DNA of 64,000 nt from Mytilus galloprovincialis (lineage: Eukaryota; Mollusca; Bivalvia; Mytilida; Mytilidae): NCBI RefSeq assembly GCF_965363235.1, contig NC_134844.1, positions 18,458,646 through 18,522,645 on the forward strand. Reading direction: 5' to 3'. Each line of letters begins with the position of its first letter. Position 1 is the stretch's first letter. Under the pieces are notes generated by a model, which made no database searches, was not told the DNA's origin, and saw only the letters and a list, made by a program, of their open reading frames with translations. Positions 4,119-64,000 of the stretch are shown here, one piece after another. The position numbers were made by a program, and so were the translations under genes.

Positions 4119-4427
4119 GGCAGCAACCATTTGATTTTTTGGGAGGGGGGGGGGGGGGGCTATGTTTTTTTTTGGAAAAAAAAGTTTGTTTCCAGTTTTT
4201 GGAGAAAAAAATAATTTGTTTTTGATTCTGAGAAAAAAAATTGTTTGTTTCACCCTCAGCTGCCACTATATGTAATGCTAAAATTGAAAGAAAAAAAATT
4301 GTTTTCGACTTGTCGCGAAAAAAATAGATTGTTTTTCGCCGCAGGCGAAAAAAAAAAATTTGTCCAGAAAAAAAAACCATAGCCCCCCCCCCCCCCCCCC
4401 CCCCCAGAAAATCAAATGGTTGCTGCC
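4119..4427. mobile_element. 309-bp MITE with TAA target duplication
   Basis: Perfect 10-bp ends GGCAGCAACC...GGTTGCTGCC, the inverted match continuing through CATTTGATTTT. Each arm carries a homopolymer (a G run near 4142-4159; a C run of over 20 near 4383-4405). TAA stands directly outside both ends (4116-4118 and 4428-4430), the 3-bp duplication type of PIF/Harbinger. Removing the element plus one TAA joins the LINE protein cleanly (KTKVL to IFSKG). No coding capacity. Confidence 0.9.
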
Positions 4428-6925: not shown

Positions 6926-7653
6926 CCATTTACCAATGTGTACATTTTTGTCATTAATTACTTCGCTTTCACCTTGTGTAGCATTACAACCATTTACAGT
7001 TAAAGACAAGCACAAAGGAGAGTGTATATCTGAGAATAAATTACAAAAATCAGAAACTTCGATCAAAATCATCTACTTTACATAAAATATTAGCAGTACA
7101 TAAAATATAATCTACTACACTAATACTTCGACTTGTTGGTTTACCAAGTACTCGGTCTTTACCGACTCTTCCGTTTAAAATATACATGTTATTATTTTTA
7201 CAAAATTGAATTAATTTTCTTCCATATGTATCGACAACAGGATCAGAACTATTACGTATTCTTGGTATCTTAAGATCGTCTAAGACATGAATGTCATTAA
7301 ACTCATTTACATCTATAAATTCGGTTAAATGTTCTTCGAAATCAGATGTATTAAAAAAATCTTGTTCATTTGCAGTGCGACTATTGAAATCACCAAGAAG
7401 AAAAATACAGTTACTATTCTTTTGTAATTCAAGAAATTCTATTTCAATTTCTGACATCGCATTTTCAGACGTATAACGAGTATTTTCAGGCGGGATATAC
7501 GTATACACTATACCCATTATTATATCATCTTCAGTTCTAAATAATATTCTATCTACTCTAAACCATAAAACAAAAGGACAATCGGTTTCTTTAAAAAGAA
7601 TAAATTTTGCATACTGTGATCTATAGCCTAAAGCTATCCCACCTGATCTAAAG
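6926..7653 (-). pseudogene. LINE ORF2, endonuclease-like domain, C-terminal part
   Basis: Encodes GGIALGYRSQYAKFIL, IIMGIVYTYIPPENTRY, FLLGDFNSRT (the GDFN box of exonuclease-endonuclease-phosphatase enzymes) and SVVDYILC, an arrangement usual for LINE apurinic-type endonucleases. It continues to HIGKW at the MULE insertion. Together with the N-terminal part at 9343-9632 it makes a nearly full endonuclease-like domain split by one insertion. Confidence 0.85.
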
Positions 7654-9334
7654 CGGCGTTTTGCATTTGCTCCAATCTGCATTTCATTTGCGCCGATTTT
7701 TTCTTTCATTTGCGCCGATTTTTATTTTCATTTGCGCCGATTTGTTTTACAGGTAAATTACATGGGCCGTGTCATCGAAGCTGTCCTAGGACTAGGACGT
7801 GTCTTAGGATGGTCTTAGGGCACGTCTTAGTCCTAAGTCAGGTTAACGAAGGTGTCCTAAAATAAGATATGTCCTAAATTTGGTCCTAAAGTTAGGATAT
7901 ATAAATAGGTGTCTTAGGATAGTCCTAAAAGTTACGATGTCCTAAAACGAAATAAAAACAACAAATATGTCATAAACTCAATAATAGAACAATACTAACA
8001 CAATATTAAACTTTTATACTGTTATCATGATTCTCTCCAAAAAGTATATTTAACGATGTCACGGTATTACGCTTATCCTATATAAATTTTGCTGCCCTTT
8101 TTAAAGCTTTGAAAATACTCTCATATATATACAACATTTTTGCACTTGAACATACAATGCAATTATAATTTGAATGAGGAAAATAAGTGACTTCTTTTTT
8201 AACTAATCCTTATTCAATACAACAAATCAAATAGAGTGGACCTAATGACAATTTTTAAACAAGTTCGTATACTAAAATTGCAGCACGAATATCGCATTTA
8301 ACCAAGTTTTGTGATTATTTATTTTTATTTTTGACGTAAGAAATTCATTTATATCTGTTATCATATTTGATATTATTAGTATTACATTAAAACGTATATT
8401 TTGCGTTTTAAATTGTTTTCCATATAAGAATACCTCCACCCTTTACGTATATACTGAAATACAATAAAATAAAGGCCATTCACATCTCTACATACTTTTT
8501 TCGATTAGATAAATGTGTTAGGATGGTCTTAGGACCATCGTAGTTAGGACTGTCCTAAGATAGCTTTGTTTTACATCCTAAGACATGTCTCAGACACGTC
8601 CTAAGACCATCCTAAATAATGTCCTAAGACATATCTTAGGACATATCCTAGGATACTTTCATTGACACGGCCCCAGGTTAATTACAGGTGGATAGACATA
8701 AGAATATGTGGTATGAGTGCAAATGAGACAACTCTCCATCCAAGATTTTTTTTCAAGATTTTATTCAGTCATGTTATTTTTCATTTAACATTATAGAACT
8801 CTTCCGTTAGCCAGTTGTACAATAAATTTCACATACTTTAAAATCAAAACGTAAAATCCTTAGATAAAAACAATCTGGTTTATACTAAAATGACGAATTG
8901 AAAATCTATTTACAGCATTCAAATCCATAAAAACGGAATACATTAAAACCATAAATCTGTTGTTGCTGGGTATTTATAGGCGACACATCTTATATATTCT
9001 TTTCTTGTGATTTCGACTCTTCTATATTTGTCTGGCTTACGTAATTATGTGTATAGCCGTCGATTGTTAAAGAATTGACTCCTCGGCTCGTTGAATGTGC
9101 AATATGTCCATCGTGTTACAGCAAAGTTCAGAACAGTATGAATCAAAATTAACTAAAACCTATGTTTATAACCAGAGTTTACCAATATACCTTAACTGTA
9201 TAGTACATGTACAAGTATTAACTTACCTGTAAATCCAATTAGGGGCAAATATAAAATCGGCGCAAATGAAAAAATGAAATAGGCGCAAATGAAAGAATGA
9301 AAATTTAAAAAATCGGCGCAAATGTCATACGCCC
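7654..9334. mobile_element. Second TGCGCC-array TIR element, 1.68 kb, MULE-like
   Basis: Flanked by ATCTAAAG (7646-7653) and ATCTTAAG (9335-9342), an 8-bp duplication with one mismatch. Ends: CGGCGTTTTGCATTTGC on the left, and GGGCGTATGACATTTGCGCC on the - strand at the right, each followed by repeated CATTTGCGCCGATTTT units. The LINE protein reads through cleanly once it is removed (KKITSLR to SGGIALG). No transposase is seen. It contains a nested 910-bp element and, at about 8690-8745, the reversed tail of a high-copy repeat. Confidence 0.82.
7764..8673. mobile_element. 910-bp TIR element built of TCCTAAGAC repeats, nested
   Basis: Perfect 11-bp ends GGGCCGTGTCA / TGACACGGCCC. Both arms (about 7770-7940 and 8515-8665) consist of many copies of GTCCTAAGAC / TCTTAGGAC-type motifs in opposite orientation. 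The AT-rich middle (7940-8510) shows no coding sense. Flanked by CAGGTAAATTACA (7750-7762) and CAGGTTAATTACA (8674-8686), a 13-bp near-perfect direct repeat, longer than standard duplications for known families. I cannot assign a superfamily. Confidence 0.8.
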
Positions 9335-36363: not shown

Positions 36364-36975
36364 TTAAAGTTCATCTGGATATAAAAATCTGTTTGGATAC
36401 TTAATGAACAACTCTAATGCTGACTGAATAGCATTAATAAATATGTCATTGCCAATATAAGACAGATGTACGCCATCATCAGCAAAAAGAGTTGGATGGA
36501 TATCATCAAAATCAGTATGTTTAATAGCCTTGCCCCCAACTTTGTGTAGGTAAGATCTAACACCCCTATTTACACGGGCTCTAGACCGTTCTATTGCCTT
36601 TTTATTCATGGCATTCCTCCAAATTCGCCTTGGCAAAATGTATGACCAAATAACAGTTGTGTTTGGTAACGATGACATTAACTGACGTAAAGTGTCCTTA
36701 ATATTATATAAAAGTTTACCATTTTGAATGTTACATAAATCATTACCACCGCAATGAATAAGAATTATTGAAGGTGGCGGTCTCCAATTCAACAATGCAG
36801 TTATAATAGAAGGAACCATGTCCCATAACATTCCTGAATGACCTATCCACACAATACTGTAACCAAGTTTTTCCAGACCCAGATCAATACCAGTTGCTCT
36901 TGTTTGAGTGTGTTCAGATGCCTTTTTTACCAAAGATGAACCAATGATCCAAATGTCATTTTTTGCTGAAAGCAA
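36364..36975 (-). CDS. Ngaro SGNH-hydrolase-like ORF
   Basis: 203 aa. Blocks expected of SGNH hydrolases: IWIIGSSLVKKA near the start, ILIHCGGNDLC in the middle and FADDGVHLSYIGNDIF near the end. An ORF of this kind is known in several Ngaro elements. Esterase-like activity is inferred from the family; its role in the element's cycle is unknown. Confidence 0.8.
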   Translation of the reverse strand: MLSAKNDIWIIGSSLVKKASEHTQTRATGIDLGLEKLGYSIVWIGHSGMLWDMVPSIITALLNWRPPPSIILIHCGGNDLCNIQNGKLLYNIKDTLRQLMSSLPNTTVIWSYILPRRIWRNAMNKKAIERSRARVNRGVRSYLHKVGGKAIKHTDFDDIHPTLFADDGVHLSYIGNDIFINAIQSALELFIKYPNRFLYPDEL

Positions 36976-36977
36976 AA

Positions 36978-37862
36978 TTAAATATTAGGAATTCTAATGT
37001 AGCGCTGAAATGATGACGACATCCAGCGACCCATGGTTTTAATCTGATTTTCAGTTTTACCAGACATAAAGGCTGACGTCGCTGCTCCTATTCTAAACGA
37101 ATGCGTATTAAATCTGGATGTGTTTAAACTCAAAAACTTGAGTCCTTTGTTTAAAACAGTCTGAAACTGAAATCTTGTCAATGATTTCCCATTTATATGG
37201 CAAAAAAGAGGACCATCATTTCCAGGTCTAATTTGCAAAAAGGCTTTCAAACTTTGTAGAGGACAAATCTCATTTGATTCATTTTTTTCCACAACTAAAG
37301 TAGTGGATCTCCCTTTTTGATCAGTTTTTGAAAATTTTATCGTAACAAACAGCTGATTTTTTACATGGTCAATATAAACATCCCGCCTATGTAAAACATG
37401 CTCTAGCATAACATTCGTTGTAATGGCAAATTCACTCACACGTAAAAAAGCAGCAAACGCTAAGTTAAATGCTGTTTGAAACAATATTGTTTCATATCTT
37501 GAAGAGCACACGTGCCTCAAAGCCACATTTAATCTAATCAAAATATCAATAGTCAAAGGTTCCCGAAGATCTTTAGACTTGTAAAGTCTATCACAACCAC
37601 CCAAAAGTTTCTGAATGATAAAAGATTTAGTTAAATCTTCATTCCCTTGAATTTTTAATTTGTAACTTATTCCAGATATATATGATCTAATTGTAGATGA
37701 TGAATAATGATTTAGTGACAAAAAACCAATATAACGAATAATTTGTCTGTTACTTGGTGGCCAACTAAGGGGAATAGAATATTCCACCCTGAACATATTG
37801 AACGAATGTAATGCATTTTCATAAACATTTCTGGTACTTTGAGAAATTGAATAATTCAACAA
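36978..37862 (-). CDS. Ngaro tyrosine recombinase
   Basis: 294 aa, ending two bases before the SGNH-like ORF starts. N-terminal SAM-like region (SQSTRNVYENALHSF), then a catalytic domain with FAAFLRVSEF and FNTHSFRIGAATSAF followed by MGRWMSSSFQRYIR, the R..HxxR..Y layout of the family. Inserts the circular intermediate in place of an integrase. Confidence 0.88.
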   Translation of the reverse strand: MLNYSISQSTRNVYENALHSFNMFRVEYSIPLSWPPSNRQIIRYIGFLSLNHYSSSTIRSYISGISYKLKIQGNEDLTKSFIIQKLLGGCDRLYKSKDLREPLTIDILIRLNVALRHVCSSRYETILFQTAFNLAFAAFLRVSEFAITTNVMLEHVLHRRDVYIDHVKNQLFVTIKFSKTDQKGRSTTLVVEKNESNEICPLQSLKAFLQIRPGNDGPLFCHINGKSLTRFQFQTVLNKGLKFLSLNTSRFNTHSFRIGAATSAFMSGKTENQIKTMGRWMSSSFQRYIRIPNI

Positions 37863-37887
37863 TTTTGAAGCTTCTACATCAAAAGAT

Positions 37888-39384
37888 CTAAGAATTCTTG
37901 TGGAATTGTCTGTGCGTCGGGTCGGCGTTGCTCGTTACTTCTCTGAACTTCTTCATCTGTCCACGAGATAAAGCATCAGCAATAAAATTGTCTTTTGAAA
38001 AAATATGCAACGCTTTAAATTGAAAATTGAATAATAATGTCCACAAAACTATTTTTCTCAACAAAAACATAACCCTGTCATTTTTTGAAGATTTTGAATT
38101 TAAAATTGCAACAACAGCCATATTATCACAATGAAAAATTATCTTCTTATTCGTAAACCTTTCTTTCCATAAATAGATGGCCAAAGCAATAGGTATAATT
38201 TCCAAATAAGTAATGTCACTTAATAAAACTTTGCCCCAATTATATGGCCATTGTAAAATTGCCCATGACCCATTTAAATAAGCTGCACAACCCAGTGAAT
38301 GACCACCTGCACTGTCTGTATACAAATGTAAATCAGCATTTGAAACCCAGTCTAAATCTTGGATATATGTATAGCCATTAAATTCTTTAAGAAAATATTG
38401 CCACATTTGCAAATCATCTCGTATTCCTTTGGTCAATCTTATAAAATGATGAGGTTTTTTAACATTTTTAAAAGAGCCATATAAACGCCTCAAAAATGCT
38501 CTACCAGAGGGAAGAGCCCTTGCACAAAAAGCCAACGAACCCGTTAAAGACTGCATTTCTTTCAGAGTAATTTTTCTTTTTTCCAATACCCAATTTATCT
38601 GATCTTTAAGTTTTTCAATTTTATCATCTGGTATTCTAACCAACATCTCATCTGAATCAATTAACAAACCTAAATACTCTAGTTTTGTGCAAGGACCTTC
38701 AGTTTTTTCATTTGCTATAGGAACTTCCAAGCTTGAACAAACATTTGAAAATGCAGTCATAAGAAAAAGACAGTCATCTTTATAAGCTTCTCCAACAAAT
38801 ATAAAATCATCAAGATAATGATCCAAATTTTCAGAATGCGTTTTATTTTTAACTGACCAATGTAAAAAGGTTGAAAATTTTTCAAATGTAGCACAACTAA
38901 TAGAACATCCCATGGGCATTGTTTTTTGGATATAGTAAAGACCATTTAGTTTGATGCCAAGTAAATCAAAATCACCAGGATAACATTTAAGTAAAGGAAA
39001 TGCGGATTTAATATCCATTTTTGCCATTAAAGCCGATTTACCCATTCGTTTAACAATTTTGACTGCATTGTCAAATGATGAATAAGTGACCTTGGTAAAC
39101 TGAGTATCAATAAAATCATTGATACTTTCATTTGGTGGGTAAGACAAATGAGTTATCAATCTAAGTCCACCAGTTTTCTTAGGAACTAAACCAATAGGAG
39201 AGCACCGAAGATTTGAAATAGGTTTATGTTTGAATGGGCCTGCCATTCGACCTAATGATATCTCATTATTTAACTTCTTTTGAGCTTCAATAGGGTTTTG
39301 CAAAACAGACAACAAATTTCTATATTCACATGAATGTCTAGGACCTTCGTAATGAATTTTAAAACCATATTTAAATCCATTCAA
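37888..39384 (-). CDS. Ngaro reverse transcriptase / RNase H
   Basis: 498 aa. RT blocks PIGLVPKKTGGLRLITHLSY, MAKMDIKSAFPL and HYLDDFIFVG (YLDD box), then an RNase H-like part (HLYTDSAGGHSLGCAAYLNG, IIFHCDNMAVVAIL). Fingers, palm and RNase H follow one another as in DIRS-order elements. Open throughout. Confidence 0.88.
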   Translation of the reverse strand: MNGFKYGFKIHYEGPRHSCEYRNLLSVLQNPIEAQKKLNNEISLGRMAGPFKHKPISNLRCSPIGLVPKKTGGLRLITHLSYPPNESINDFIDTQFTKVTYSSFDNAVKIVKRMGKSALMAKMDIKSAFPLLKCYPGDFDLLGIKLNGLYYIQKTMPMGCSISCATFEKFSTFLHWSVKNKTHSENLDHYLDDFIFVGEAYKDDCLFLMTAFSNVCSSLEVPIANEKTEGPCTKLEYLGLLIDSDEMLVRIPDDKIEKLKDQINWVLEKRKITLKEMQSLTGSLAFCARALPSGRAFLRRLYGSFKNVKKPHHFIRLTKGIRDDLQMWQYFLKEFNGYTYIQDLDWVSNADLHLYTDSAGGHSLGCAAYLNGSWAILQWPYNWGKVLLSDITYLEIIPIALAIYLWKERFTNKKIIFHCDNMAVVAILNSKSSKNDRVMFLLRKIVLWTLLFNFQFKALHIFSKDNFIADALSRGQMKKFREVTSNADPTHRQFHKNS

Positions 39385-39512
39385 AAGTTCAACAGCGCTT
39401 TGCTTATCATGATATAGTTCCAGAAGCTTAGATAGTTCATTTACATTAACCGGAGACTTTCCTAAGGCCCAAATATTAAACTGGTCTGGATGTAGTTCTG
39501 AAAAATTGTAAA

Positions 39513-40481
39513 TTATCTCTTGTTAAAACCACCTTTTGGGTTTTGTCTATTATCAGAGTTGTTTACGAAAGGTGTAATGTTATTTTTCTTAAACCTAGAT
39601 GGACCAGTATTACCTTCATTGTCCACATAGCGACGACATCGTAAAGCAGGATGATTAAAACCACATTTGAGACATGCATGTCTGTATTGGCAATTGCGTT
39701 TATTGCAAAAACCTTTAAAATTAAAATCATAACATTTATAACCAACATTAGCCTGCTGTTGTTTTTGAGAATTGTTAGTTAAAATACGCAACCACAAAAA
39801 ACCGTCTATGGATGACCATTTTTTTGTATGATCCCTTGATACTCTCAAACGAAATTGTTGGTCATAAGAATACCATTTTGCAACAGGGTGATCAGTCGCT
39901 GCACCCCTTATTATGGACATATATGAGAAAAGTTCACTTGCTTTTCCAGGATGCCTTTCAATAAGGACCTGGGCATAAGCAATAAAACAATCAGTCCAAT
40001 TCTCAACAGAAGTAATAGTAAGGTTATTCTTAACTTTGTTTTGTATTACCAGCATACCGTCATTAATGCCAATGGTGTTTTCATTTGTTTGACTGTTGAA
40101 ATTGTTGCGATGCATAAGGGACAAATCAATATATTCAAAATTCCAAATCTTATCCTTAAGCTTTTGACTTATAAATACATCAACCTCATTAAAACCAGGC
40201 ATCATTAAAGGTTCATCAAAAACATCAATAACCTCACCTAAGGCAGCTAATTGAGGTTCATTCTCCTGCAATTCTACATCTGGTTGCAAGGCAACTAATT
40301 GAGGTTCATCAACCATCCGTCTTCTTACTACAGGGGCATCTTCATCAACCTCAACTTGGGGGCGCCTTCTCTCATTCCTAACTGGTGGTTGCTGTTGTTC
40401 CATAGGAGCCCTTCTAATACGAAGTTCTCGACCTCCTACAACCGGGTCCTGCCGACGACGTCTGCCTCTACCCCTTGGCAT
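39513..40481 (-). CDS. Ngaro Gag-like protein
   Basis: 322 aa. Basic N-terminus (MPRGRGRRRRQDPVVGGR), Glu/Pro/Val-rich linker, central region with WTDCFIAYAQVLIERHPGKA, and a C-terminal Cys/His cluster (CYDFNFKGFCNKRNCQYRHA, CLKCGFNHPALRC) suited to nucleic-acid binding. First ORF of the element. Confidence 0.82.
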   Translation of the reverse strand: MPRGRGRRRRQDPVVGGRELRIRRAPMEQQQPPVRNERRRPQVEVDEDAPVVRRRMVDEPQLVALQPDVELQENEPQLAALGEVIDVFDEPLMMPGFNEVDVFISQKLKDKIWNFEYIDLSLMHRNNFNSQTNENTIGINDGMLVIQNKVKNNLTITSVENWTDCFIAYAQVLIERHPGKASELFSYMSIIRGAATDHPVAKWYSYDQQFRLRVSRDHTKKWSSIDGFLWLRILTNNSQKQQQANVGYKCYDFNFKGFCNKRNCQYRHACLKCGFNHPALRCRRYVDNEGNTGPSRFKKNNITPFVNNSDNRQNPKGGFNKR

Positions 40482-44974: not shown

Positions 44975-47900
44975 GTATGTTTTTTTTTAATTCTTTTCTT
45001 ATTTTCCTTTTTTAAAGTACATGTAGATAGTATTTCTATTCGTTTGTAAACATTATATATGAAAGCGGGAAACTGTTTTGTGTAAGAAAAAGTAAGAAAA
45101 TCACTAACAAATCAAAATTTTGATTATTGCATTAAACTGTCGCTTTTTTTGCAATGATAAAAACATTGCAATGATTTTTTTAATTCACAGTTTTGCCAGT
45201 TTGTGTTTTAATACGCCCGTTTACAGGACGTATAATGGTATACTGTCGTCCGTCCGTCTGTTCGTCCGTCTGTTCATCCGTCCGTCCGTCTGTTTGTCCG
45301 TCCGTCCATCCGTCTGTCTGTCTGTCTGTCTGGCCTTAAAGAGCTTGAACGTATGTTTTTTTTTCTATTTTCATGTAAAAAGTAATTTGTTGAATTAAAT
45401 GATAAATGTACTTTGGAAATCTTTTTTGGGGGGTAATTCATGGAAAAAAGGTAGGCAACTTATTAATATAATTAAAGTTTCTTATTATTCTAAAACGCAA
45501 AATATCTCAATAATTTCTGAATTTAGAGGTTTTTTGTCCCGTTGTATAATACTGGTGTCAGGTATATGAAGTAACTCATAGACAAGTGATAGCAGTAAAC
45601 AATCATTTATTAATCATTGCATTGAACACCTTTTGCAGCCAGAGTCAATATTATATGTTATAGTGACCATATTCTAATCAAATACTAAAGTTTTGAATTT
45701 GTACTTCTTTTCTAACATACCTTAGATGTGAGCTAGTATGGCGTGACGAAGAGGTATGTTTCCGGTCAATATTTCTAGTACCTTCACAACTTTGTTTTCT
45801 AAGAACCAAGTTCTATTATATTTAGGCTTCAACAAAACTGTATTTTGAACTGAAATATTGTTGTCACAGAGAAATGAATGTAAATAAAGCAGTTGAAACT
45901 ACGGCGAAAAATATTTTGTTTATGGTGAATATATACTATTTGCGTTACACCACTTCCGAGCCACCTTTATCCGACAGTGATGTAACACAGTGGTATATGC
46001 TACCTGATAATTTCACTATTTCCTTACTATATGATTTGGTGGTTGCTTACAAGAATTCTAAAAATTATTGGTTTCTTAAGCTAGAATTAAAGTCGCTACT
46101 TAGATAGATGTACGGATAAATTGAGATTTAATGTTTTATAAGTAAGGAAACAATAAGGAAAACTTGTTATTTCAGATCTGAAAACACAGATATATTTATA
46201 TTGTCGTAGTCACAATCTCTTCCTCTTTTCTGCCTTTTTTTTTTTTTTTTTTTTTTTATCCAACATATATAATATACAACAGTACAGTTATCAAACATTA
46301 AGTTCATATATATGAATGCAATATAATACAACCTATCAGAAAATGTATAGAACTTGAAAATAACATTTTGTTGGGATTTTATAATTGTATCTTATTAAAA
46401 AGGACATACAAAAAATAAGTATAGAGAATTAATAAATAAAAGAATTAAAAGATGATTAAGAAAAAGAAAAAAAAACAAAAAAAACAAATATAAAAAAAAC
46501 AAAAACTTAGTTTGATTTCTGCTAATTTTGTATAGTTGCTAATCCACCAAATTATCATGTAAAGCCTCTTGGTAAATGCACCAAGCTTGATTAAACTTGT
46601 CAAAACATTTATTTTTAATTGATATTTTCTTCTCCAAAATATAATGATGCTTTATTTTTTCAATCAATGCTGTTAAACTTAATTCTCCTTTAAAATATCG
46701 TGTATTATATATATATATATTGTTTAATCCAGAGAAAAATAATGTTTTGAGGGTCACCTTTGTACATTCGTGATAAATTCCAAACAAAAAAATATCTTGT
46801 GTAAATGGTATACTAATACCATTCTGGAGAAACCACATTTCAGTTTGCTCAATAAATTGTTGTACATAATAACGGTCCAACAGTATATGTTCAATTGATT
46901 CAAGTTCAGTCTTACAAAAAGTACAATATGGGTTTTGCACTATCCCAATTTTGTTTAAAAACGTATTTGTTGCCAGAATTTTATGATTAATTCTATACTG
47001 AAGCCCTTGTAGCTTAGTATTTTTTGTAATAGCAAATGGTAGTTAAAAAAATCTTTTTCCAGTTTTGATTTTCTAAAACTAAAATTGCTTCCCATCTTTT
47101 TACTCCTGTAGGAACAGTGTTGTTTTTGTTAAGCACCAAATACATATCTTTAGATCCCTTTTTGCTTTTGAGAATGGTCTTTACAACTGATGGTATGAAA
47201 AGAGATACTAATTTATAATCTCCCCTATTAATTTTTTTGGAAGTCTTCAGAAATTATGCTATTATATTTCATGATGTCTATATCCATCTGAAAACACTCC
47301 TGAAATTGATAAAAATTTAGAAAGGTACCATTCTCCCCAACAATATCATTTACATGTAGAATACCCTTACTATGCCAGTCTTTGAAAAACACTGGTTTGT
47401 TGTCAATTTGGAATAGGTTATTCATACAAATTGGACTGTAAAGAAAATATTCCCAGTCGTGCAAATTCATTTCTTTTTCAATTAACATTTGCCAAGCACC
47501 CAGTACATCTTTCCAAAATTTATTCTTAATACTTTGCTGTAGTTGCTTTACGTAGCTATTATCACAAATAAAGAATCTATCTTTATCAACATATGACAAA
47601 AATATATTTCGCCATTTACAATCGTTTTTACAAATTCTTCTTATCCAAGTACATTTCAAAGCATTTATAAAAGCATGTAATTTAATCATTTTTGAGCCTC
47701 CATCACAATAATCTTTTTGTATTACATCTTTTTTTTACACTATGAATTGGTGAGTTCCAGATAAACTTATACATAAGTTCATTTATCTGTTTAATTATAT
47801 CTTCACTTGGATTAGGTAGTGACAATATTAAATGATTTAAAATTGGCAACATAAGTGTCTTTACAACAGTAATTCTACAAATAACAGTAATGTTACGTCT

Positions 47901-50900
47901 AGACCATTGTTTGACTAGTTTTTTTTATTTTTACAATATTTTCATTATAATTGATTTTAACTATTTTTTCTAAATCAACATCAAAATTAACACCCAATAA
48001 TTTAAAGGATGTGCTTCCCCAAGTAAGATTTTGATTTGTACAAAGTGTCTCTGTGCTGTACTTTTTACTTCCAATCCAAATTACATGAGTTTTCGAAAAA
48101 TTTATATTCAAACCAGACATTTTCGCAAACCAATCGAGTTCCAATAATGCCTCATTTAAAGATTCTTCGCTTCCATCTAAAAGTAGTGATGTATCGTCAG
48201 CAAACTGCGAGAGTTTGTGTTCAACATGAACAACTTTGATTCCATTTATATTTTTGTTATTTCTTATTTTTAACGCTAACATTTCTGCACAAAAAATGAA
48301 ACTATAAGGCGATAATGGATCACCTTGCCTACAACCCCATTCAACAGTGAAAAAGTCTGAAAGATTTCCTCCCTGAATGACTGCTGAATTAATGTTTCGA
48401 TAGAGCACTTTCACCCAATTTATAATAGAATCGCCAAAATTAAAAGATTTCAATACATTTAAAAGAAATTCCCATGAAATGGAATCAAAGGCTTTTTCAA
48501 AATCTATCAACAATAAAAGGCCTGGTATATCATTATCTTCAGTATATTCCATGATATCATAGATCAATCTTAGATTTTCCTCTATATATCTTCCACTCAT
48601 AAAACCTGTCTGATCAGTATCAATAAGTTTCGTCAAAACTGTTCTAAATCTTCTTGCTATAACCTCAGAGCCAATTTTATATACAGTATTAAGCAAAGAT
48701 ATAAGGCGCTAGTTTTTAAAATAATGTCTAGGTTTGTTACCTTTTGGAAGACATGTAATTATCCCCTGTTTTTGAGGAACAGAAAGTTCCCCTTTATCAT
48801 AACCTGCATTCAAGGATCTTAAAACAAAAATTTTTAAGTCAGGCCAGAATTTTTTTTTAAATTCACTCGAAAAACCATCTGATCCAGGCGTTTTATTGCT
48901 TTTCATTCTTTTTAAAGATTTAATAATTTTAACAGGATATGGTGTTACCTATGTAAGATGGGGAAGAAAAGGTTGTCCTGATGGTTCCGAACTTGTTTAT
49001 ACAGGTAATGTTCGTTTTTCATATAAAGTTTTTAATGAACATCATTTACAACTTCTTTAGTTTACTCTATCAATGATTTCTGGTGACCTTCTGCTGTTGT
49101 CTGTTCTATGGTCGGGTTGGTGTCTCTTTGACACATTCCCCATTTACATTCTCTATTTTATGTAACTGTTATATGAATATAATATATAACAACAAACCAT
49201 GGCCAGTGTATACTGATTTGTATCACTACAATATAATAGTTATTGCGGTGAGGTTGAATTTCCTGTCATTTATTCATCATCAACGCACGAACTTGTCTCA
49301 GAAAAAAATCTCTGTACATTAACCTCAGTTTCATGTATAGAGGTGTGCTTTTTTTCTGTGACAAGTGCTTTTGGCCATCCAAAAAAAACTTGCAGTCATA
49401 ATATGTTCAGTACGTCAGAACTTTGATTGATTTTGGTTTAAGATCTTAATAGCAGAATATGTGTAAGAGACACTGCCTTATTATATAAACTTGAAGAAAT
49501 AAACAGGTTAAAGGCGACTTAATTGTATTCGATTGCTCTGCATAAGAAGATGATTTAACTGGAACAAATCACACTTTTAAAGAAATAACGGACAATGCAG
49601 TTACATATATAGTTTTAGTTGGTATTATTACAACACTGTTTGTGAAATCGTTGCATTAAAGAAATTTTCATTTTGATAAAAATTCTAATTTGTTTTTCCG
49701 ACACATTTTTGTGCTAGTATTGGTCTATACCCCAATATAGTGGTTTCAGTTAAGAAGGGTTATTGTGTTTCATTTCATGTATAGCGATGTTAAACACTGC
49801 AGAATGACTGGAAAAAAAACCTCATGTAATATAAAAGTTACCATCATCTCCAAACTATTTTGATCGATAGTTACCACCATCCCACCTTAGAGTTACCATC
49901 ATCAACGCATTTTTATTGTGTTCAATTTTCTCAGTAGCAGACAAATGCCTCAACATTTTGAAAACATATTTTTTCCAGTAGTTTACTGATAGTTGGATTT
50001 TTGTCAGATAACATTTGTAGACGGTCAGGTATTAAAATACTGTGAACAAATAAACTTCAACAGAAGCTAATATTCTTGATCACAAATAGCAAATAGGAGA
50101 AATTTAAAATTAGTAAACCGTTTTTTACTGATAAGTGGACTTTTAACACGCGACAGACACGTTTCGACTGAAAGCAGTAACCACAGGCGACACAAGGTTC
50201 CACTGCTTCACGTATTCTTTCTGAGTATTCGTTCGTAGTGTGCTTTGATGTTTCCCTATTAGTCTTTGTTAAATTTGTACTTTTCAAAAAAATGTTCAGA
50301 ATTTATCTTTGTTTCAAATAAAGAAATACTTGGCATGAGTAAAATTTTATCCTGTCCAGTACTATAGAAAAAAATTCACATAACATTTCATTGCATATAA
50401 GAAAATAACCATCATTGGAAGTTAACCAATCAAATGTCTCCCCTTATTTTATCTGTGTACAAGGTTTAGTCACCATGTAACCTCAAGATTACAAAATTTT
50501 CTATAGAAATCCCAAATAAAAAATAATGGTGTTTTGAAATACTCATATAAGACATATGTTCATGACACAGAAATGTTTTTACTGCAATAAAATGTAGAAT
50601 TAATTAGCTACAACTGTCAAGTTCAAGGGAATATTTTTTTAGACCTACTTTCGTATACAACCGGATGTGACGTACCATGATTTGGTGGTATTACACCTAC
50701 ATGTATCTCTTATTTTGATGTTGTAGGTCAAGCTGGTGGTAACTTTTATGATCATAAAGGCGGCGGTGTTAATTATCTTTGTCTTCCAAATGATCCCGAA
50801 AATGGAGAACACCAATCATATACCAACTCTCAACTTTATGGTGCTGAATATCAGATATTTAAAAACCAAAAGCCTCATGGAATGTCGGGTAGTTTGGTGG

Positions 50901-55014: not shown

Positions 55015-57450
55015 ATGGCAGTTACTATAGGGGCTCTTAATTGCAGGGGACTGTCGGAAGAAGTAAAACGCAGAGATATTTTTTAATAGATGTAATACAA
55101 AATATGATATAACTTTTTTATGTGATACACAATGTACAAAAGAAAGAGAAAATAAATGGAGAAATGAATGAGGATATCAAGCCTATTTTTTCTCGTTCAC
55201 TGGACACAGCAGGGGAGATGCTATACTTCTAAATAATAAATTCAAAGTTATTGTTCATAAAGAATACAAACATTAAGAGGGAAACTATTTAATTTTGAAT
55301 ATGACCATTCATGAGTATCGAATAACTTTAGCTGGTATATATGGCCCAAATAATGATAATCCAGGTGTTTTCTCAGAGTACAGGAAGTAATCTCAAATAT
55401 TCAAAATTCATCAATAATTATGGCAGGAGACGGGAATGTAGTTCAAGATTATGAAATTGATACACTTAATTATAAAACAAAAATGATAAACAAAGCGTAT
55501 ACTAAACTGATAGAAATAAAGAACTCCTTAGACTTGGTAGATGTTTGGAGAGCAAATAACCCAGACAAGAAAAGATATACATGGAGAGGCCCAGCACATA
55601 AACAAAGTCGTTTAGACTAGTTTTTGATATCCACTGATTTTGAATCCTTAGTAAATAAATCTGATATAGATATTAGCTATCGTTCTGACCATTCTCCTGT
55701 TTCTCTCAGTTTAAAATTTTATAACCAAGAAAGGGGAGGGGTACTTGGAATTTCAATAATAGCTTACTACATGATACTTATTATGTGGCTGAGATTAAAA
55801 AGTGTATATCAGACACTGTCAATCAATATAACCTATCAAATACAGATACTGGGGAAGAAACAGAATTATCTGTAAACCCCCATATATTTTGAGAGTTATT
55901 AAAATGTACAATAAGAGGGAAAACTATCTCTTATATTTCATATCTAAAAAAAAAGTCAAAGGGAAGAATCTCAACTTGAACAACAATTAAACATTTTACA
56001 AAATAGATATGACCTACACCTAGATCAGGAACTAAAAACTGAAATTCAAAGCATAGAGGAGAGTTTAAGAACATTAAGAGAAAAGAAAAAAATGGAATAA
56101 TTGCAAGAACAAAAGCAAAATGGGAAGCAGAAGGAGAAAAATGTACAAACTACTTTTGTAATTTAGAAAAAAGCCATTATAATGAAAAAATTATCCGTAA
56201 AGTTATCAATGAGAATGGAGATGAAATCTTTGATCAATTCAAAATATTGGAAGAACAGAGAAAATTTTATCAAAATTTATTTTCATCTATTAATAAAATT
56301 GAGAATGGAAATGGGGAATGTGTCAAAGAGACAACAACCCGCCCAAATAAAAAACAACAGCAGAGGGTCACCAACAGGTCTTCAATGTAGCGAGAAATTC
56401 CCGCATATATGCATTTTGTAAAATGGAACATGAAAATATGTTTTTCAATAGAAATAACTCTTTTATCAATTGTTTATCAGAAGAACAAATATTAGAAAAT
56501 GAGGGAAAATTATCAACTCAAGAATGTCTGAATGCCTAAAAAAAAAACATGAAAAACAATAAATCACCAGGGGTAGATGGGTATACAGCAGAGTTTTATA
56601 ATTTTTCCTTGAATGACCTTAAATTCTATTTACTTAATTCCTTTAATTATAGCTTTGAAGAAGGCTCTTTATCCATTTCGCAAAGACAAGGCATTGTTAC
56701 ATGCATCCCAAAAGAAGGAAAATCTAAGTTTTAATTAAATAACTGGCGACATATCACCCTTTTAAATGTTGATATGAAAATATGTTACGCGTCCATCTCA
56801 AATAGAATTAAACCTTTGCTCAAACATAATATTAGTAAAACACAGTTAGGATTTATTAAAGGTAGATACATTGGGAAATGTACAAAACTGATTTTTGACT
56901 GAAAAGAACTGAAGAAGAAAATATACCTGGACTTCTACTCCTTTTAGACTTTGAAAAAGCATTTGATACTCTTGAATGGTCATTCATAAATAAAGCACTT
57001 GAATTCTTAGGTTTTGGTCCAGATTTCTGTAATTGGGTACAATATTTATATTTTAATATCGAAAGTTGTATCAAAAATAATGGTCATTGTTCTAGTTTCT
57101 TTAATATAGAAAGAAGGGTCCGTCAAGAGGATCCTTTATGTCTTTACCTTTTTATACTGGCTGTGGAAGTTATGAGTGCAGCAATGAAAAATAACCCATA
57201 TATTAATGGTATTAAGATAGATAACTCTGAATATTTGCTTAGTCAGTATGCAGATGACTCAACCTTAACTTAAAAAATCGTTAGAACAATCTCTATATAT
57301 TTTAGTGTTCTGGTTTATGAGCAAACTTAGAAAAAACTGAAGCATTTTGGATTGGGTCAAAAGCACGTTCAAAGGAAATATTTCACCAAGGAGAAAGATT
57401 AAAATGGAATCAGACAGGGAAATTTAAACTCTTAGGTATAAACTATGATG
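55015..57450 (+). pseudogene. LINE ORF2 (endonuclease and RT), heavily broken
   Basis: Starts MAVTIGALNCRGLSEEVKRR, then pieces of the endonuclease (TFLCDTQCTKERENKW, HEYRITLAGIYGPNNDNPGV, SRLD) and of the RT (MKNNKSPGVDGYTAEFYNFS, IVTCIPKEGKS, LLNVDMKICYASISNRIKPL, GFIKGRYIGK, LSQYADDSTLT, KFKLLGINYDV). More than ten stops and frame changes. A 110-bp repeat is inserted near 56296. Confidence 0.8.
56296..56406 (-). repeat. 110-bp insertion of the high-copy retroelement 3' end
   Basis: Identical or nearly so to 53143-53253 (ATTGAGAATGGAAATGGGGA onward), then switches back to LINE sequence at GCATATATG. Inserted in the LINE ORF2 in the region just upstream of the RT. Confidence 0.8.
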
Positions 57451-57709
57451 TACGGCGGCTTTGTGAAAAATTGTGCACATCCTGCTACAAGCATGGAATT
57501 TGACATAGACCTTCCTCAACTATATCTTTTTTATTTCAGATAGGGAGGCATTTGAAAAAGATGTCTCACTTCCGGTAAAATTCAAAATGGCGGACATCAT
57601 ACTTAAATTAGCCCAATATCGAAGGTTATTTTTCCCTTCGCCATTCATAAGCGATGGACTAGTTAGCACAGGAACCAATACCAAGCTTGTTACTCATTCG
57701 CACCCGCTA

Positions 57710-58810
57710 TGGTATATTGCACGTTTTGCTTACTGAAAAAGACTAGACGGAGTCGTGGGAATAGCCTCAGTAAGTGTTTCCTCTTCCAAATACACATTAT
57801 TCTTGCTTCGTTAACCCCATCTGATAAGTTTGTTCGATCTTACAACAAAACCACGTATCGTTCTATCAATGACACTGTTAAATCCATATCTGGTGATTTT
57901 GGCTGATAAATGATAGAGTCACATCTTTAAAAAACACCATCCATGTCACCGACGCAGTTCCTTTTACAGCAAACGTGTAATCTCTAAATGCCTGGTGAAT
58001 TTGAAAGGTCATGGACGGATAGATATATGAGGCTGTTCACTTCCAAATGCAAGCCTTTTTGTTTTTGTCTGCCCCTATGTCACTGAAAAGCGAAACAGCA
58101 ATGACAGCAACATCAGTATCGACCGTTCGAGTCATGACTCAGTTAAGTCTGTGTTTCACTGCATCAGACACATGCATCTTGATTCAAGTGTCAGCCTCTT
58201 CACGTGAACATGATGCTAAGCTTGAAACATCATCATGTGGTGGATAACACAGAACATCCTGAGCAATTGTTGCTACAACTACCTTTTCCTCAAAACCTAT
58301 TGAGCAAGCTGATGCGAATGAAAACTTAAAAGTTCTTTCTTATTGTCGTCATCTTGTTTTGACTCTGGATTTGTCTGTGTATTCCCTTTCCCTTAAATGT
58401 AGCTCTTGCTTCTTATAACAAATGCTCAGGATATTCTGTCTTATTTACCTCGAGATGTATTTCAAGTTGATCACCATGTTCACGTTAAGAGGCTGACAAT
58501 AGAATCATAGTACATATGTCTGATGCAATGAAACACGAACTTGCACGAGTCATGATTCGAATAGTCGTTACTGATGATGCTGTCATTACTGTTTCGCTAC
58601 TCCGTGACAGGGGTAGACGAACAATGAATTGTGTTCGGGAGGGCAAAAAGCTCCCTCAACTTGGTCTAGTTTCTTTTCGGCATGTAAAACGTGCAATATA
58701 CTTAGACAGGTGTTTAGGGGGACGAGCTTGGAATTGGCTCTTATGCTACTCAGTTCAGGCGCTAATGGATGGCGAAGGGACAAAGAGGATAACTTTTAAA
58801 TAACTCTTTC
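57710..58810 (+). pseudogene. EADTR/DTDV-family protein fragment A
   Basis: At 58489-58610 one frame reads EADNRIIVHMSDAMKHELAR and VMIRIVVTDDAVITVSL, which fits the EADTR..(V/I)R.VDTDVVV core of a protein family I recognise as lineage-expanded in bivalves and cnidarians. About 15 codons further KKLPQLGLVSFRHVKRAIYL resembles its C-terminal LPP...L..HVKRA.YQ motif. Stops and frame changes break the rest. No named function is known to me; the acidic motif spacing suggests a PIN/FEN-like nuclease, an inference only. Confidence 0.55.
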
Positions 58811-58849
58811 TAAGGCCTCATCATTTTGTCCGAGGAATGCGGGTAAAGG

Positions 58850-59590
58850 CAAAAAAAATGCTACATCCTAAGCAGCAGAAACTAAAGCCACACAATCTTC
58901 ATTTTAAATGGACACATACTACAACAAGTCAAGCATAACCCATACCTAGGCCTAAAAATTTCGGAAGACCTCAAATAGACCACGCACATATTAAACGTGG
59001 CAAAGAAAACAAATTCAACACTTGGCTTTCAAAGAAGAAACTTGAAATACTGCTCACAAGATTGCAAAAATATAGCTTACATCTCGCTCGTTGATCAACG
59101 ATGGAATATGGATCCATAGTATGGGACCCCTACACGGTAACACACATAAATAAGCTAGAAAGGATTCAACGTCAAGCAGCAAGATTTATCACCATAGATT
59201 ACAAGTCGAGAGAGGACGGGTGTGTCTCCAATATGCTTGCTCAACTGGACCTACAAGACCTCCAAACAATTGCAAGACGAATAAGCTAGAAGTTTAATTT
59301 ATTTAAATACAAAGTGGTTTAGGGGCTGATTCGCATTTCCGCTATTGAACCAGAAGAATTTCCTAAAAAAGCACGTCCTAAGAGAAACATAACTGCCAAG
59401 AAGTTCGAAGACTACCACGCAACAAATATTGTGGAAAAGCAAGTAAAGAATCACTCTAAGTGTTTTGACATTCAAATAAACAAAACACCACAATACTCAA
59501 ACTCATTCTTTGTATAGGCAGTGATCGCGTCGAATCAGCTAGACGACATTGTAGTGCGAGCATTAAATCTGCTCTTTCGCCTCGTAGTAC
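58850..59590 (+). mobile_element. LINE 3' fragment (RT tail)
   Basis: Frames give NPYLGLKISEDLK, NVAKKTNSTLGFQRRNLKYC, LERIQRQAARFITIDYKSRE, MLAQLDLQDLQTIARRISK and ITAKKFEDYHATNIVEKQVK, the typical C-terminal end of a LINE RT family widespread in cnidarians and molluscs. Three or more frame changes. It is cut at its 3' end by the nested TIR element. Confidence 0.78.
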
Positions 59591-60479
59591 TTAGGGTGCC
59601 CAGTATCGAAAAAGACGTCTAGTTAACGAGTTTAAGTTAACGGATAACACACGGCTATATTTATATCCAAACTATCGGAATATCATTATATTTTTCAATC
59701 ATGAATGTCGTCGTAAGCTACCGTGGTCACGTTTTTCAAAATTTTGTGGTTTCTTAGGGTACCCAAAGATACCTCATAATACAGGCCATCTTCAACACGA
59801 AAAATATAATTATTGCTTTGTGTGTTATTTGTTCAAATGATACTTATCATTTAGCTTGAACATTAAATATATATCATATAACGAAAGCTGAAAAGATTTA
59901 GATTATTTAATTCTAAGTATATCATTTTTTTAGTAAGACTATTTTTTAGCCGAAATTTACCACATTTTGAACGAAAGCAAATTTATTGTGTGTTACCTTC
60001 ATGGGATTTTTACTCTGATTAAATCCATAAGACATGGTTCATATGTGTGCCAAATATATTTCGTGTAATGTTAATCGGTGAAAAGAAAATAACAATTAAA
60101 AACACAAATTTAGTGATATGTTTGCCTTGATTCAAACACGCCTTTTCTCGTGCCGTTACTCGTTTTGCAGCTTACACTATTAGGTCATTAACTATTGTCA
60201 CTAACTTCATTTCTCATTTTAGATTTTTGTATGGCCAATTTGTTTGTTTTGAATAGTCCAGTTTGTTCGAAGATCGTTGTTTTGTACTTTGAAATATCAC
60301 TTTGGTTTTTATAACTTTAATTGTGTTCTCTTTTAATTGATAGTTTTGTTATAATTGTAATATACAAAACAAATCCTTCGGTCACGTTTCAGACCCGGAA
60401 TATGACACACATTCACAGTCCTGTTAAACTATGCTAATCAAACCCTAAGCAAAGTTGGACTGAAATACAATGGGATAAG

Positions 60480-61880
60480 TGTGTTTTAACTTATATGTCA
60501 TGGTTCTTCTACTGAATTGCTTATTAATATGCGAGGAATTAACACTAAAGCTTTATCGAGGCTATGGGAAGACGGAAAGATCATGTATATTTTAGTATAT
60601 TGCACGATGCTTCAGACCTAGACTATCTTCGTACTGATGATTACAAAATGTTGTACCATCATTCTTGATTTAAATATTACACTAGCAGACACAACTGCAG
60701 TTATTTTAAAGCTTAATCAAGTTCTTGTTCGTCTGTAAAGTGTTTCAGGGCATACATAGAAGGTCGTCAAATTCCTGACTGTATAAAGTTTCTTTGGGTC
60801 AGTGAGAACCAGCAGGCCTTAATCATATTTCTTGGTGAATTGATTGTTTGGCATCATGGTATATCAACAGTTACTATTATACATGAAGAAGTCATTTTCT
60901 ATTTAACACTTCCAAGGACCCTAAGTCAGCTCAGACGGAGTATTCAGGTTGGAAGAATTATTTTGTACGCCCGATGAAGTAGATACTGGCATGATTTTAC
61001 ATGCTATACATGTAGACAAAGAGTTCGATGTGAAAGGAATCAAGAGTAGGCTAATAGTAAGGTCACAAGATACAGATGTTCTGATATTATGGGCTCATAA
61101 GTACAAATGAGAGGTTTATCGCTATGAAACCAGGTTCAATTCACCATTTTCTACATTTGAAAATGTCTGTACCATGTCAGGAACATGACAGTTGTTGTCC
61201 ATTCGTTTTTGATGAGTTTTGTCATTTGATTTTGCCATGCGATTATGGGCTGCCCGATTGAATTTTCCTCGGAGTTCAGTATTTTGTGATTTGCATGAGC
61301 TATGGTTTCAAACAGGCAATATAGCTTGCACATGTAAAAGTATCGGGTTTGCCACCTGTAACATGGTACCAGCCGCACATGATGTTACATGATGCGATAA
61401 AATGTAATTGGTCCTGTTTAGCATCGATAGGTGCACTGTTTATAAGTCTTAAAGGAAAACCCAGATGATTTCATCGATTTGTCAAACCTTTCTTATTGTG
61501 ATATCGATGAATCGATAGATGCAGCTCGAGATCTTGGTGTTAGGTTGGATTATCTAAAGTCAAAACTAAAAATAGATCATTGTGCTTAAACAAATTGAGC
61601 GTAAAATTGGCTACAATTTAAAATTTCTCCCTTGTAAAATTTCTTCCTTGTGAATCTACTTTTAAACAATATGAAATAAACGCTTCACTCCAGACGTAAA
61701 GATATCTTCCAAAATAGCAAAACTAACCTAGCATTCTCCTCTTCAGTTCGAATGATAAAAATGTGACTTCTATCCTGTACAGATGTATGCCCATATCAGG
61801 CAAATGATATATGTCAAAATGTAAATACTCGTCTGGTTGCAGTTAGAAACATTGATGACGACGAAGATGACGATGTATAA
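60480..61880 (+). pseudogene. EADTR/DTDV-family protein fragment B, C-terminal half
   Basis: 60971-61108 encodes DEVDTGMILHAIHVDKEF and RLIVRSQDTDVLILWAHKY; further on, ELWFQTGNIAC, CNMVPAAHDVT (family: NMLPA.HALTGCD), NPDDFIDLSNLSYCDIDESI, then LPCKSTF-like sequence, and a clean C-terminus CTDVCPYQANDICQNVNTRL...DDDEDDDV with stop at 61878-61880. Several stops interrupt it. Same superfamily as fragment A but a different subfamily. Function unknown; a metal-dependent nuclease is an inference from EAD...DTD. Confidence 0.6.
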
Positions 61881-62169
61881 GATTTCATTTTTCTCTATGT
61901 ACCTTATAAATCATTGTAGCTATCGAATGAAAATTAAGAAGTCCATAATATTTTCAATTAACAATAAATAAAACATATAATCAATTTTTATATCGTTGGA
62001 AATATAGTAATAATCTTTCTAGTGGGGATTCCGAAAGATATGTAAATTAAAAAAAAAACCTGCCATATGTTCTCTGACCTTGGCATGGTTGATGGGCTAA
62101 AACTACAGAAGACTACTAAGAACGTAGTAGGTAAAACTAGCCTCGATCATAATTTTCTATTTGCATTTA

Positions 62170-62460
62170 ATCTTTGTGTGTGTGTGTGTGTGTGTGTGTT
62201 TTAGCAATACTGTTGCCTGCTTGTTTTCATTTTATAAGTTTTTAAAGTTCCTTTGGTTTCTTACGCCTTTTTTGTTCGCATTGTTTGTAAAAACATCGGA
62301 TCTGTACATAACCCTCTCCCTTATTATTAAATTTTTGGAATACTTATAAACATTATAGCCAATTGTTGCTCATAAAGTCATCTGTATATGTAAGAAGGGG
62401 TGTTTTACCTGTTCTAATAGACGTTTCGTTTTCATAACTTTTGCCCCCCCCCCCCCCCTT
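62170..62460. repeat. (GT)n and poly(C) low-complexity tracts
   Basis: A GT run at about 62175-62198 and a run of about 14 C at 62444-62458, inside the nested TIR element. Confidence 0.85.
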
Positions 62461-63462
62461 TCCCTTTTTCTCTGTTTACAGTAATTTTTACTTCTTTAAA
62501 GCAAAGTTATACACAAAGCTTTAAATACAACCAAGTTAGACGTTGATTTCGGAACAAATCATTTAAATATACTATTTCGCACCCAATAAAAAAAATTTGA
62601 TATTTACCTAGAAATTGACGAACACCTTACTTTCAAAAGACGTGGAAAACACATTTTGTTTTCAACAAATGATTAAAGTTAAGATCTAAAAAACGTCTTT
62701 AGATATTACTTGTAACGAATTAAATACAAAAATAACAAATTTAGAAATTAAAATAGGTCAAGGTCACTGTTATTTAACAGCTGTTTGAAAATTTCAAATT
62801 TGCACCCTACATGCAAAAAAGTCAATCTAAAGTCATTTTTGGGGATGAAAATATAAAATAAGTTCTAAATGTAGATACAAAAGATATTTTTCTATAAATT
62901 AATTGTTTTTATTTTGCTCCAAACGCATAAATCTAGGAGAATCAAGCTATCTAAATGTGACTGCATTTTCCTTGAATTTTTGCTTTGACCTTTGACCCTG
63001 GTTTAAAAAAATCGTGACCACGATAGACAGCGACGACAATGCTATTTCGATGAGGCTTGTTCTCCTCTTTCCAATGATATAAAATATAGCCGTGTGTTAT
63101 TCCGTTAAGGCAAATCGATAAGATTTGTTGATCGGGCACCCTACTATCGTCAATAAATCGGCTTTGCTCTCTCAAACCGTGATTATTATATTAAAGCCAG
63201 AATTTGTATCGATAACGTATTCATACTGATACAGATACAGAGGATGTCGTGGTCGTTGTTAATGTTGAAAATCGGGTCTCCGGTGCACTTCTTTGTTAGC
63301 ATGTGGTGGTGACTGTGAATAAACATGTATTTTTAGCCAAATAGTAGTAATTTGAAAAATGTTTTAGTACTTCAGTAATTTTATTTTGTTTGAACCAATC
63401 TATCTAAAACTCTAAATCAAAGATATTGATTGAGGACTCATTTTTGAAATTAACACCATATT

Positions 63463-64000
63463 GGCTTTTTTTTTACCGGAAGTGTGATTTAAAAATTTAC
63501 AACAGAATGAAATTAGTGGTTTTGAGGATAACTAGAAACCAATAGTTTAATGACAAGCAAAAAAACCCCAACAAAAAGATTTTCTTTACATTTTGAAAAA
63601 AGTTCGCCATTTTGGATATATCCGGAAGTAAGATTTTTAAAGTGATATGTCGTATATATTGTATCCATGAGAAGCAAAAAGAAAGGTTCCTGCACAATGT
63701 AATGATAGTAGCAATACATTAAAACACATTTATATTATCCTCCCTAAAAGTAAGCTTATTCTAGTACTATATCCGCCATGTAGGATGTTCCCGGATGTAG
63801 TGTTTTTGAAGACATATTATCTATATCATATATTCAAAAGTTGTACATAACAAAGGTTGGTACCAAATATTATGTTAGTAGCATGATAGTAACACCTTTT
63901 CACATACTAGCCTTCGATAAAGGGCTGATTTAAGTATGATGTCCGCCATTTTGGATTTTACCGGAAGTGAGACATTTTTTTCAAATGCCTCCCTATCTGA
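63463..64000. repeat. About 160-bp tandem units pairing GCCATTTTGG and CCGGAAGT
   Basis: Four diverged units start near 63463, 63607, 63773 and 63941. Each has a GCCAT(T/G)TTGG-like word followed about 6-12 bases later by CCGGAAGT or CCCGGATGT. The left TIR carries the same pair in reverse (CACTTCCGG...CAAAATGGCGG). The two words match the cores of YY1 and ETS/GABP sites. Confidence 0.75.

What the first reader, a model, noticed from the sequence alone, without database searches (positions are those of the whole stretch)
57536..64000. Two nested TIR elements that both carry an uncharacterised EADTR/DTDV gene family
The outer (57536-64000) and inner (59594-63141) elements have unrelated termini, yet each contains a broken copy of the same superfamily: EADNRIIVH...VTDDAVITV in one, DEVDTGMILHA...DTDVLILWA in the other, plus shared C-terminal motifs. 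This suggests the genes are the mobile elements' own proteins rather than captured host genes, i.e. a TIR transposon group whose enzyme is not a recognisable DDE transposase. The EAD...DTD pattern resembles metal-binding acids of PIN/FEN-type nucleases (inference).
Basis: partly seen in the sequence, partly recalled or inferred. Interest (0 to 1): 0.75.

Follow-up and report, generated by a model that had tools for sequence, protein, structure and literature searches.

The report
Nested wrecks of DDE-plus-flap-nuclease transposons
The end of this probably mussel-derived window holds two nested, long-dead DNA transposons whose intact relatives make one large protein joining a predicted cut-and-paste (DDE) transposase to a flap-endonuclease-like nuclease, an arrangement that fits the already named AcademX group.

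Summary
The observation largely holds. The outer unit has 93-bp inverted ends at 93.5% identity; the inner unit's ends are shorter and decayed. Both carry wreckage of one protein family: a profile of 25 long relatives hits the outer unit on both strands (E 8e-22, 3.5e-11), a Cys-rich tail (7.5e-6) and, weakly but above controls, the inner unit (about 3e-4).

One protein with transposase and nuclease fits AcademX. No Academ sequence was available, and the target duplication is unresolved, so membership is likely, not proven. The window copies lost the transposase half; the outer unit is partly palindromic and contains a LINE-like tail and the inner unit. Verdict: dead members of a probably known kind.

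The parts
57536..57628 (+). left terminal inverted repeat of the outer unit (TCAGATAGGGAGGCATTTGAAAAAG...)
   Evidence: 93 bp, 93.5% identical to the reverse complement of 63908-64000, E 8.6e-37
57643..58356 (-). outer unit, minus-strand gene remnant: flap-nuclease region and downstream part, relatives' residues about 1204-1461, reading towards the left end; stops and gaps
   Evidence: profile hits 58067-58324 E 8e-22 (residues 1213-1300), 57774-57881 E 0.0017 (1382-1417), 57643-57801 E 0.0088 (1409-1461), 58285-58356 E 4.3 (1204-1227, not significant alone); tblastn hits from 125 of 125 held relatives in 57580-58655
58435..58605 (+). outer unit, plus-strand gene remnant: EADNR...TDDAV, relatives' residues 1237-1295
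   Evidence: profile E 3.5e-11; inverted copy of the minus-strand remnant: 58064-58271/58417-58621 80% and 57629-57760/58652-58784 74%
58880..59590 (+). probable 3' tail of a LINE reverse-transcriptase gene inside the outer unit (MEYGSIVWDPYT...)
   Evidence: reading of the translation; no Pfam match at E <= 0.01, so the name rests on recalled LINE tails
59592..59760 (+). left end of the inner unit (TA then GGGTGCCC...)
60771..60884 (+). inner unit, possible remnant of the block upstream of EADTR (IPDCIKFLWVSENQQALIIFLGEL), other frame
   Evidence: 0.4 to 1.6 bits, not significant alone; in the right order
60964..61092 (+). inner unit gene remnant: DEVDTG...QDTDV block, relatives' residues 1253-1290
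   Evidence: profile E 3.1e-4 and 4.4e-4 with two nuclease-region profiles, 2.4e-3 with the full-length profile; 0 of 300 shuffles of the inner unit reach it (best 3.9 against 14.0 bits, and 4.9 against 12.5)
61333..61461 (+). inner unit, possible remnant of the GCD block (MVPAAHDVT*CDKM), same frame and order as the piece above
   Evidence: 1.9 to 3.1 bits with the XPG profile, not significant alone
62986..63143 (-). right end of the inner unit (...GGGCACCC then TA)
63239..63316 (+). outer unit, remnant of the C-terminal Cys-rich (CXC-like) domain, relatives' residues 1493-1518
   Evidence: profile E 7.5e-6 with the tail alone, 0.0022 with the whole profile
63450..64000 (+). four subterminal repeats, cores 146 to 170 bp apart, each with a CCGGAAGT-like core followed by TTYRAA; the last one runs into the end
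63908..64000 (-). right terminal inverted repeat of the outer unit, cut by the window end

Best explanation
Both units are dead, internally deleted DNA transposons of one broad superfamily. Its long members encode a single protein of about 1,520 residues: N-terminal zinc-finger-like Cys motifs, a DDE transposase domain (RNase H fold with a helical insertion, like P element, hAT and RAG1), a FEN1/XPG-type nuclease domain holding the EADTR and DTDV motifs, and a Cys-rich C-terminal tail. This is most likely AcademX, the nuclease-encoding branch of Academ. Inferred mechanism: the DDE domain cuts and joins the ends; the flap nuclease trims 5' flaps or opens branched or hairpin intermediates left at the donor or target junctions, a job that other DDE elements leave to host enzymes (recalled); the zinc-finger-like and Cys-rich parts bind the ends and subterminal repeats. 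Shown here: gene remnants, TIRs, predicted folds, conserved acids. Inferred: catalysis, division of labour, DNA binding. In the window the transposase half is not detectable in either unit. The outer unit is a partly palindromic derivative (two opposite 3' gene pieces) that also contains a LINE-like tail and the inner unit; both units could have moved only with a helper enzyme.
Confidence: 0.77

Rival explanations
1. One reading: a TIR transposon group whose only enzyme is the FEN/PIN-type nuclease, with no DDE transposase.
For: Only nuclease-region, downstream and tail remnants are detected in the window; sequence libraries name no transposase in the relatives scanned.
Against: The relatives' upstream region is predicted to fold as a DDE transposase with invariant D, D, E.
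Confidence: 0.05
2. A host flap-nuclease-like gene family captured by unrelated TIR elements.
For: The two units' longer termini are not clearly related; no intact gene inside TIRs was seen.
Against: The nuclease is joined to a predicted DDE domain in one chain in long relatives; named relatives are scattered over mussel, pearl oyster, annelid, sea spider, corals, sea anemone, fish and hagfish, as expected of a mobile gene.
Confidence: 0.07
3. Same protein architecture, but a superfamily distinct from AcademX.
For: No direct sequence comparison with AcademX was possible; the inner flanks fit a 2-bp TA (or CT) duplication exactly and a 4-bp one only with a mismatch.
Against: Architecture, size and bivalve abundance fit Academ as described.
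Confidence: 0.13
4. The outer unit is not one element but two same-family copies in opposite orientation joined by rearrangement, so 57536-64000 never moved as a unit. (This concerns the history only and is compatible with the best explanation.)
For: Internal arms are only 74-80% alike, the ends 93.5%.
Against: The ends being more alike than the arms also fits one unit whose inverted duplication is older than its last move, or homogenised ends.
Confidence: 0.3

Closest known systems
AcademX (nuclease-encoding Academ DNA transposons)
   Same: DDE transposase plus nuclease, TIRs, element size, expanded in bivalves (PMC10045372 and PMC10294476, passages seen)
   Different: the window copies are broken and the 3-4 bp duplication is not shown; no direct sequence test was possible
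AcademH
   Same: same superfamily name; adds a second enzyme to the transposase
   Different: encodes a helicase and makes 9 or 10 bp duplications (PMC10045372, passage seen); no helicase domain was reported in the relatives scanned
P element transposase
   Different: no PDB sequence match of the family profile to it; P element has no flap nuclease (recalled)
FEN1/Exo1/XPG nucleases
   Different: fused to a transposase; no XPG/FEN match in Pfam or PDB by sequence
Pfam DUF6589 (PF20231, unknown function)
   Same: matches the later part of the DDE domain in 3 of 25 long relatives at E <= 0.01 (best 6.2e-4; position seen only for the next three) and in P0039, P0053 and P0121 (E 9.7e-6 to 1.3e-7; two of these three above the curated cut-off)
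   Different: no match at E <= 0.01 in the other 22 of 25; the family has no assigned function

Membership tests
AcademX | encodes a DDE transposase | tested here: met
   in relatives, by predicted fold and invariant D, D, E; the domain is not detected in the window copies
AcademX | encodes a nuclease | tested here: met
   predicted FEN1/Exo1 fold and seven invariant acids in relatives; fragments in the window
AcademX | target duplication of 3-4 bp | tested here: inconclusive
   inner flanks ...TACTTA/GGG...CCC/TACTATC: TA or CT exact (2 bp), or ACTT/ACTA (4 bp, one mismatch), depending on where the TIR starts; outer right flank lies beyond the window
AcademX | protein sequence aligns with known Academ transposases | not testable with these tools
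   no model named Academ appeared in any library search; the AcademH paper is not held
FEN1/XPG nuclease superfamily | flap-endonuclease fold | tested here: met
FEN1/XPG nuclease superfamily | seven metal-binding acids | tested here: met
   D1126, D1169, E1261, D1263, D1287, D1289, D1346 invariant in 25 of 25; the correspondence to FEN1 positions is recalled, not computed
CXC (tesmin/LIN54/MSL2) domain | nine-cysteine CXC module | tested here: inconclusive
   nine-Cys pattern in 20 of 25 relatives; two of the 120 listed relatives carry the source name 'Tesmin/TSO1-like CXC domain'; no Pfam or PDB sequence match

The most novel reading that the evidence does not exclude
These transposons bring both the scissors and the repair nuclease in one polypeptide: the DDE domain makes the strand transfer, the fused flap nuclease processes the 5' flaps at the new junctions (or hairpins at the donor), and the Cys-rich CXC-like tail docks on TTYRAA sites repeated through the subterminal region, so that transposition does not depend on host FEN1.
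Probability: 0.2. Interest if true: 0.65.

Novelty: new member of a known kind. Interest (0 to 1): 0.38.

Why it matters
It gives a large protein family, whose named members are mostly 'uncharacterized', 'unnamed' or 'hypothetical', a likely identity: transposases of the Academ type, with a predicted P element/hAT/RAG1-like DDE domain (partly overlapping Pfam's DUF6589) and a complete FEN1-like set of acids. That makes a concrete question testable: why does a transposase carry its own flap nuclease? The window copies themselves are ordinary transposon wreckage.

Tried and rejected
Searches that gave nothing useful: Pfam on the window pieces and on P0001-P0005; Pfam on 6, NCBIfam on 4 and PHROGs on 3 long relatives (chance-level rows at most); PDB sequences with P0001, the A1 profile, a tail piece and the A4 profile (chance-level rows or none); viral contigs with P0016, A1 and A2 (6, 15 and 24 pattern matches, none confirmed) and with the end sequence (none); genome contigs with A1 (15 pattern matches, none confirmed); protein search with the inner read-through (none at E <= 0.1); Rfam on the window (none).

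Mended on checking: I had written that Pfam recognises nothing in the relatives. One search lists a precomputed PF20231 for 3 of 120 rows, so I ran: DUF6589 covers the later part of the DDE domain in those three and, at E <= 0.01, occurs in 3 of 25 long members (and DUF6570 in 1 of 25 at E 0.0099). It has no assigned function and does not decide the DDE question. P0036 is a fusion with a pinin gene in its record.

Foldseek on the DDE domain gave no match better than E 0.36, and that row was unrelated; the DDE call rests on VIA-align. I keep it because the 18 best rows are all DDE transposases and the three acids are invariant and sit on the expected elements (first strand; just after a core strand; the helix after the helical insertion).

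Set aside: relatedness of the two termini (short shared core, mixed statistics). The TTYRAA idea: all 4 subterminal repeats hold TTYRAA after the CCGGAAGT-like core; of 16 palindromic YR hexamer classes it is the only one found in any of them, and 6 of 20,000 shuffle rounds have it in all four. But it was noticed after the fact, the repeats share descent, LIN54 needs two CXC domains for tight binding and recognises DNA by tyrosines, and single-CXC MSL2 uses an arginine (PMC4974476, abstract and passages seen). So it is kept only in the novel case. The likeness of CCGGAAGT and AAAATGGCGG to ETS and YY1 sites is recalled, untested.

Papers: PMC10045372, PMC10294476, PMC9587614, PMC12730594, PMC8290104, PMC10799480, PMC5718144, PMC5753468, PMC3627910 and PMC9783078 were seen as passages only; PMC4974476 as abstract and passages; the rest as search listings. 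Descriptions of Academ by Kapitonov and Jurka, and of the AcademX nuclease as 'XPG', are recalled. PMC3627910 mentions a RecQ helicase in Academ. The listings showed no paper that I could confirm as stating the XPG-Academ link; I did not read every listed paper.
Full report
What is in the sequence. The last 6.5 kb of the window holds two nested inverted-repeat units. The outer ends, 57536-57628 and 63908-64000, are 93 bp long and 93.5% identical (E 8.6e-37). The right one ends at the last base of the window, so neither the exact terminus nor the flanking duplication can be read. The inner ends are GGGTGCCC (from 59594) and GGGCACCC (to 63141), each with TA outside, backed by decayed arm blocks (94% over 33 columns, 81% over 31). 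The host is probably a mussel or close kin: all 5 of 5 hits to the outer gene piece are from Mytilus coruscus, at 45-70% identity.

The gene family. A search seeded with a Mytilus relative returned 385 proteins at E <= 1e-5 among 2059 candidates (120 listed), from mussel, pearl oyster, annelid, sea spider, corals, sea anemone, fish and hagfish among the named ones and many without a name. Candidates were limited to about 490-1559 residues by the query length. Of the 125 proteins held, 25 exceed 1,300 residues and 19 are 1514-1551 residues long; conserved blocks run through the whole chain. Sequence libraries name no enzyme: Pfam on all 25 gives only DUF6589 in 3 and DUF6570 in 1 at E <= 0.01, NCBIfam on 4 and PHROGs on 3 give nothing meaningful, nor do PDB sequences with two family profiles. 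DUF6589 also matches three other relatives (E 9.7e-6 to 1.3e-7), over the later part of the DDE domain described below.

Where the window matches. A profile from the 25 long relatives (A1), run on six read-through frames, gives: outer minus strand 58067-58324, E 8e-22 (residues 1213-1300), then 57774-57881 (E 0.0017) and 57643-57801 (E 0.0088), in order towards the left end; outer plus strand 58435-58605, E 3.5e-11 (residues 1237-1295); outer plus strand 63239-63316, Cys-rich tail, E 7.5e-6 with the tail profile and 0.0022 with the whole profile; inner plus strand 60964-61092, E 3.1e-4 and 4.4e-4 with the two nuclease-region profiles and 2.4e-3 with the full profile. The reversed window gave nothing better than E 1.2 with the four profiles run on it, and 0 of 300 dinucleotide shuffles of the inner unit reached the inner score (14.0 against at most 3.9 bits; 283 of the 300 gave any hit). 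Two further inner pieces in the right order are too weak to count alone. The inner stretch with cysteines that looked like a shared C-terminal motif aligns, weakly, to the GCD block of the nuclease. tblastn agrees: 125 of 125 held proteins hit the outer minus-strand remnant, 124 the plus-strand one, 6 the inner block; the held proteins were themselves found from the outer remnant, so for the outer unit this is not independent. Nothing before about residue 1,200 is detected in either unit (hits printed to E 5).

History of the window copies. In the outer unit two 3' gene pieces lie in opposite orientation, 80% and 74% alike in their aligned parts, both pointing outwards and both without a detectable transposase half: a partly palindromic derivative. 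Its right arm contains what reads as a LINE tail (58880-59590) and the inner unit. The ends (93.5%) are more alike than the arms, which suggests that the inverted duplication is older than the last move, or that the ends were homogenised (inference).

Comparison with the known. A DDE transposase encoded together with a nuclease is how AcademX is described, with 3 or 4 bp duplications, against a helicase and 9 or 10 bp for AcademH (PMC10045372, passages). Academ elements are reported as expanded in bivalves, with curated elements averaging 5,565 bp (PMC10294476, passages).

Mechanism. Shown: fragments, TIRs, predicted folds, conserved acids. Inferred: the DDE domain cuts and joins; the flap nuclease removes 5' flaps or resolves branched or hairpin intermediates, a step that retroviruses and other DDE elements leave to host nucleases (recalled); zinc-finger-like and Cys-rich parts bind the ends. 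The outer right end has four subterminal repeats, cores 146 to 170 bp apart, each with TTYRAA after a CCGGAAGT-like core; a CXC-like tail reading these is an attractive but weakly supported idea.

Verdict. Real observation, sensible guess about the nuclease, not supported on the missing DDE enzyme; dead members of what is very likely a known group.

Noticed in passing
window 36364-40481 (-): A compact tyrosine-recombinase retrotransposon-like gene set: GDSL-like hydrolase ORF, tyrosine recombinase, reverse transcriptase with RNase H-like match, and a basic gag-like ORF without Pfam match, all open; looks like a DIRS/Ngaro-type element (name recalled).
   Followed up: partly
window 63450-64000: Four subterminal repeats, cores 146 to 170 bp apart, with CGCCATTTTGGAT-like, CCGGAAGT-like and TTYRAA motifs; the first two resemble YY1 and ETS sites (recalled).
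   Followed up: partly
window 56549-57450 (+): Broken LINE reverse transcriptase just outside the outer left end (Pfam RVT_1, best piece E 3.2e-9).
   Followed up: partly
window 3088-7709 (-) and 47899-48696 (-): LINE endonuclease and reverse-transcriptase ORFs; the ORF at 3088-4713 contains an in-frame insertion-like stretch running from a poly-Gly to a poly-Pro run.
   Followed up: no
relatives P0039, P0053, P0121: Pfam's DUF6589 (unknown function) overlaps the later part of the predicted DDE domain, hinting that DUF6589 is a piece of a transposase.
   Followed up: partly
window 62175-62199 and 62444-62458: A TG dinucleotide run and a run of 15 C inside the inner unit.
   Followed up: no
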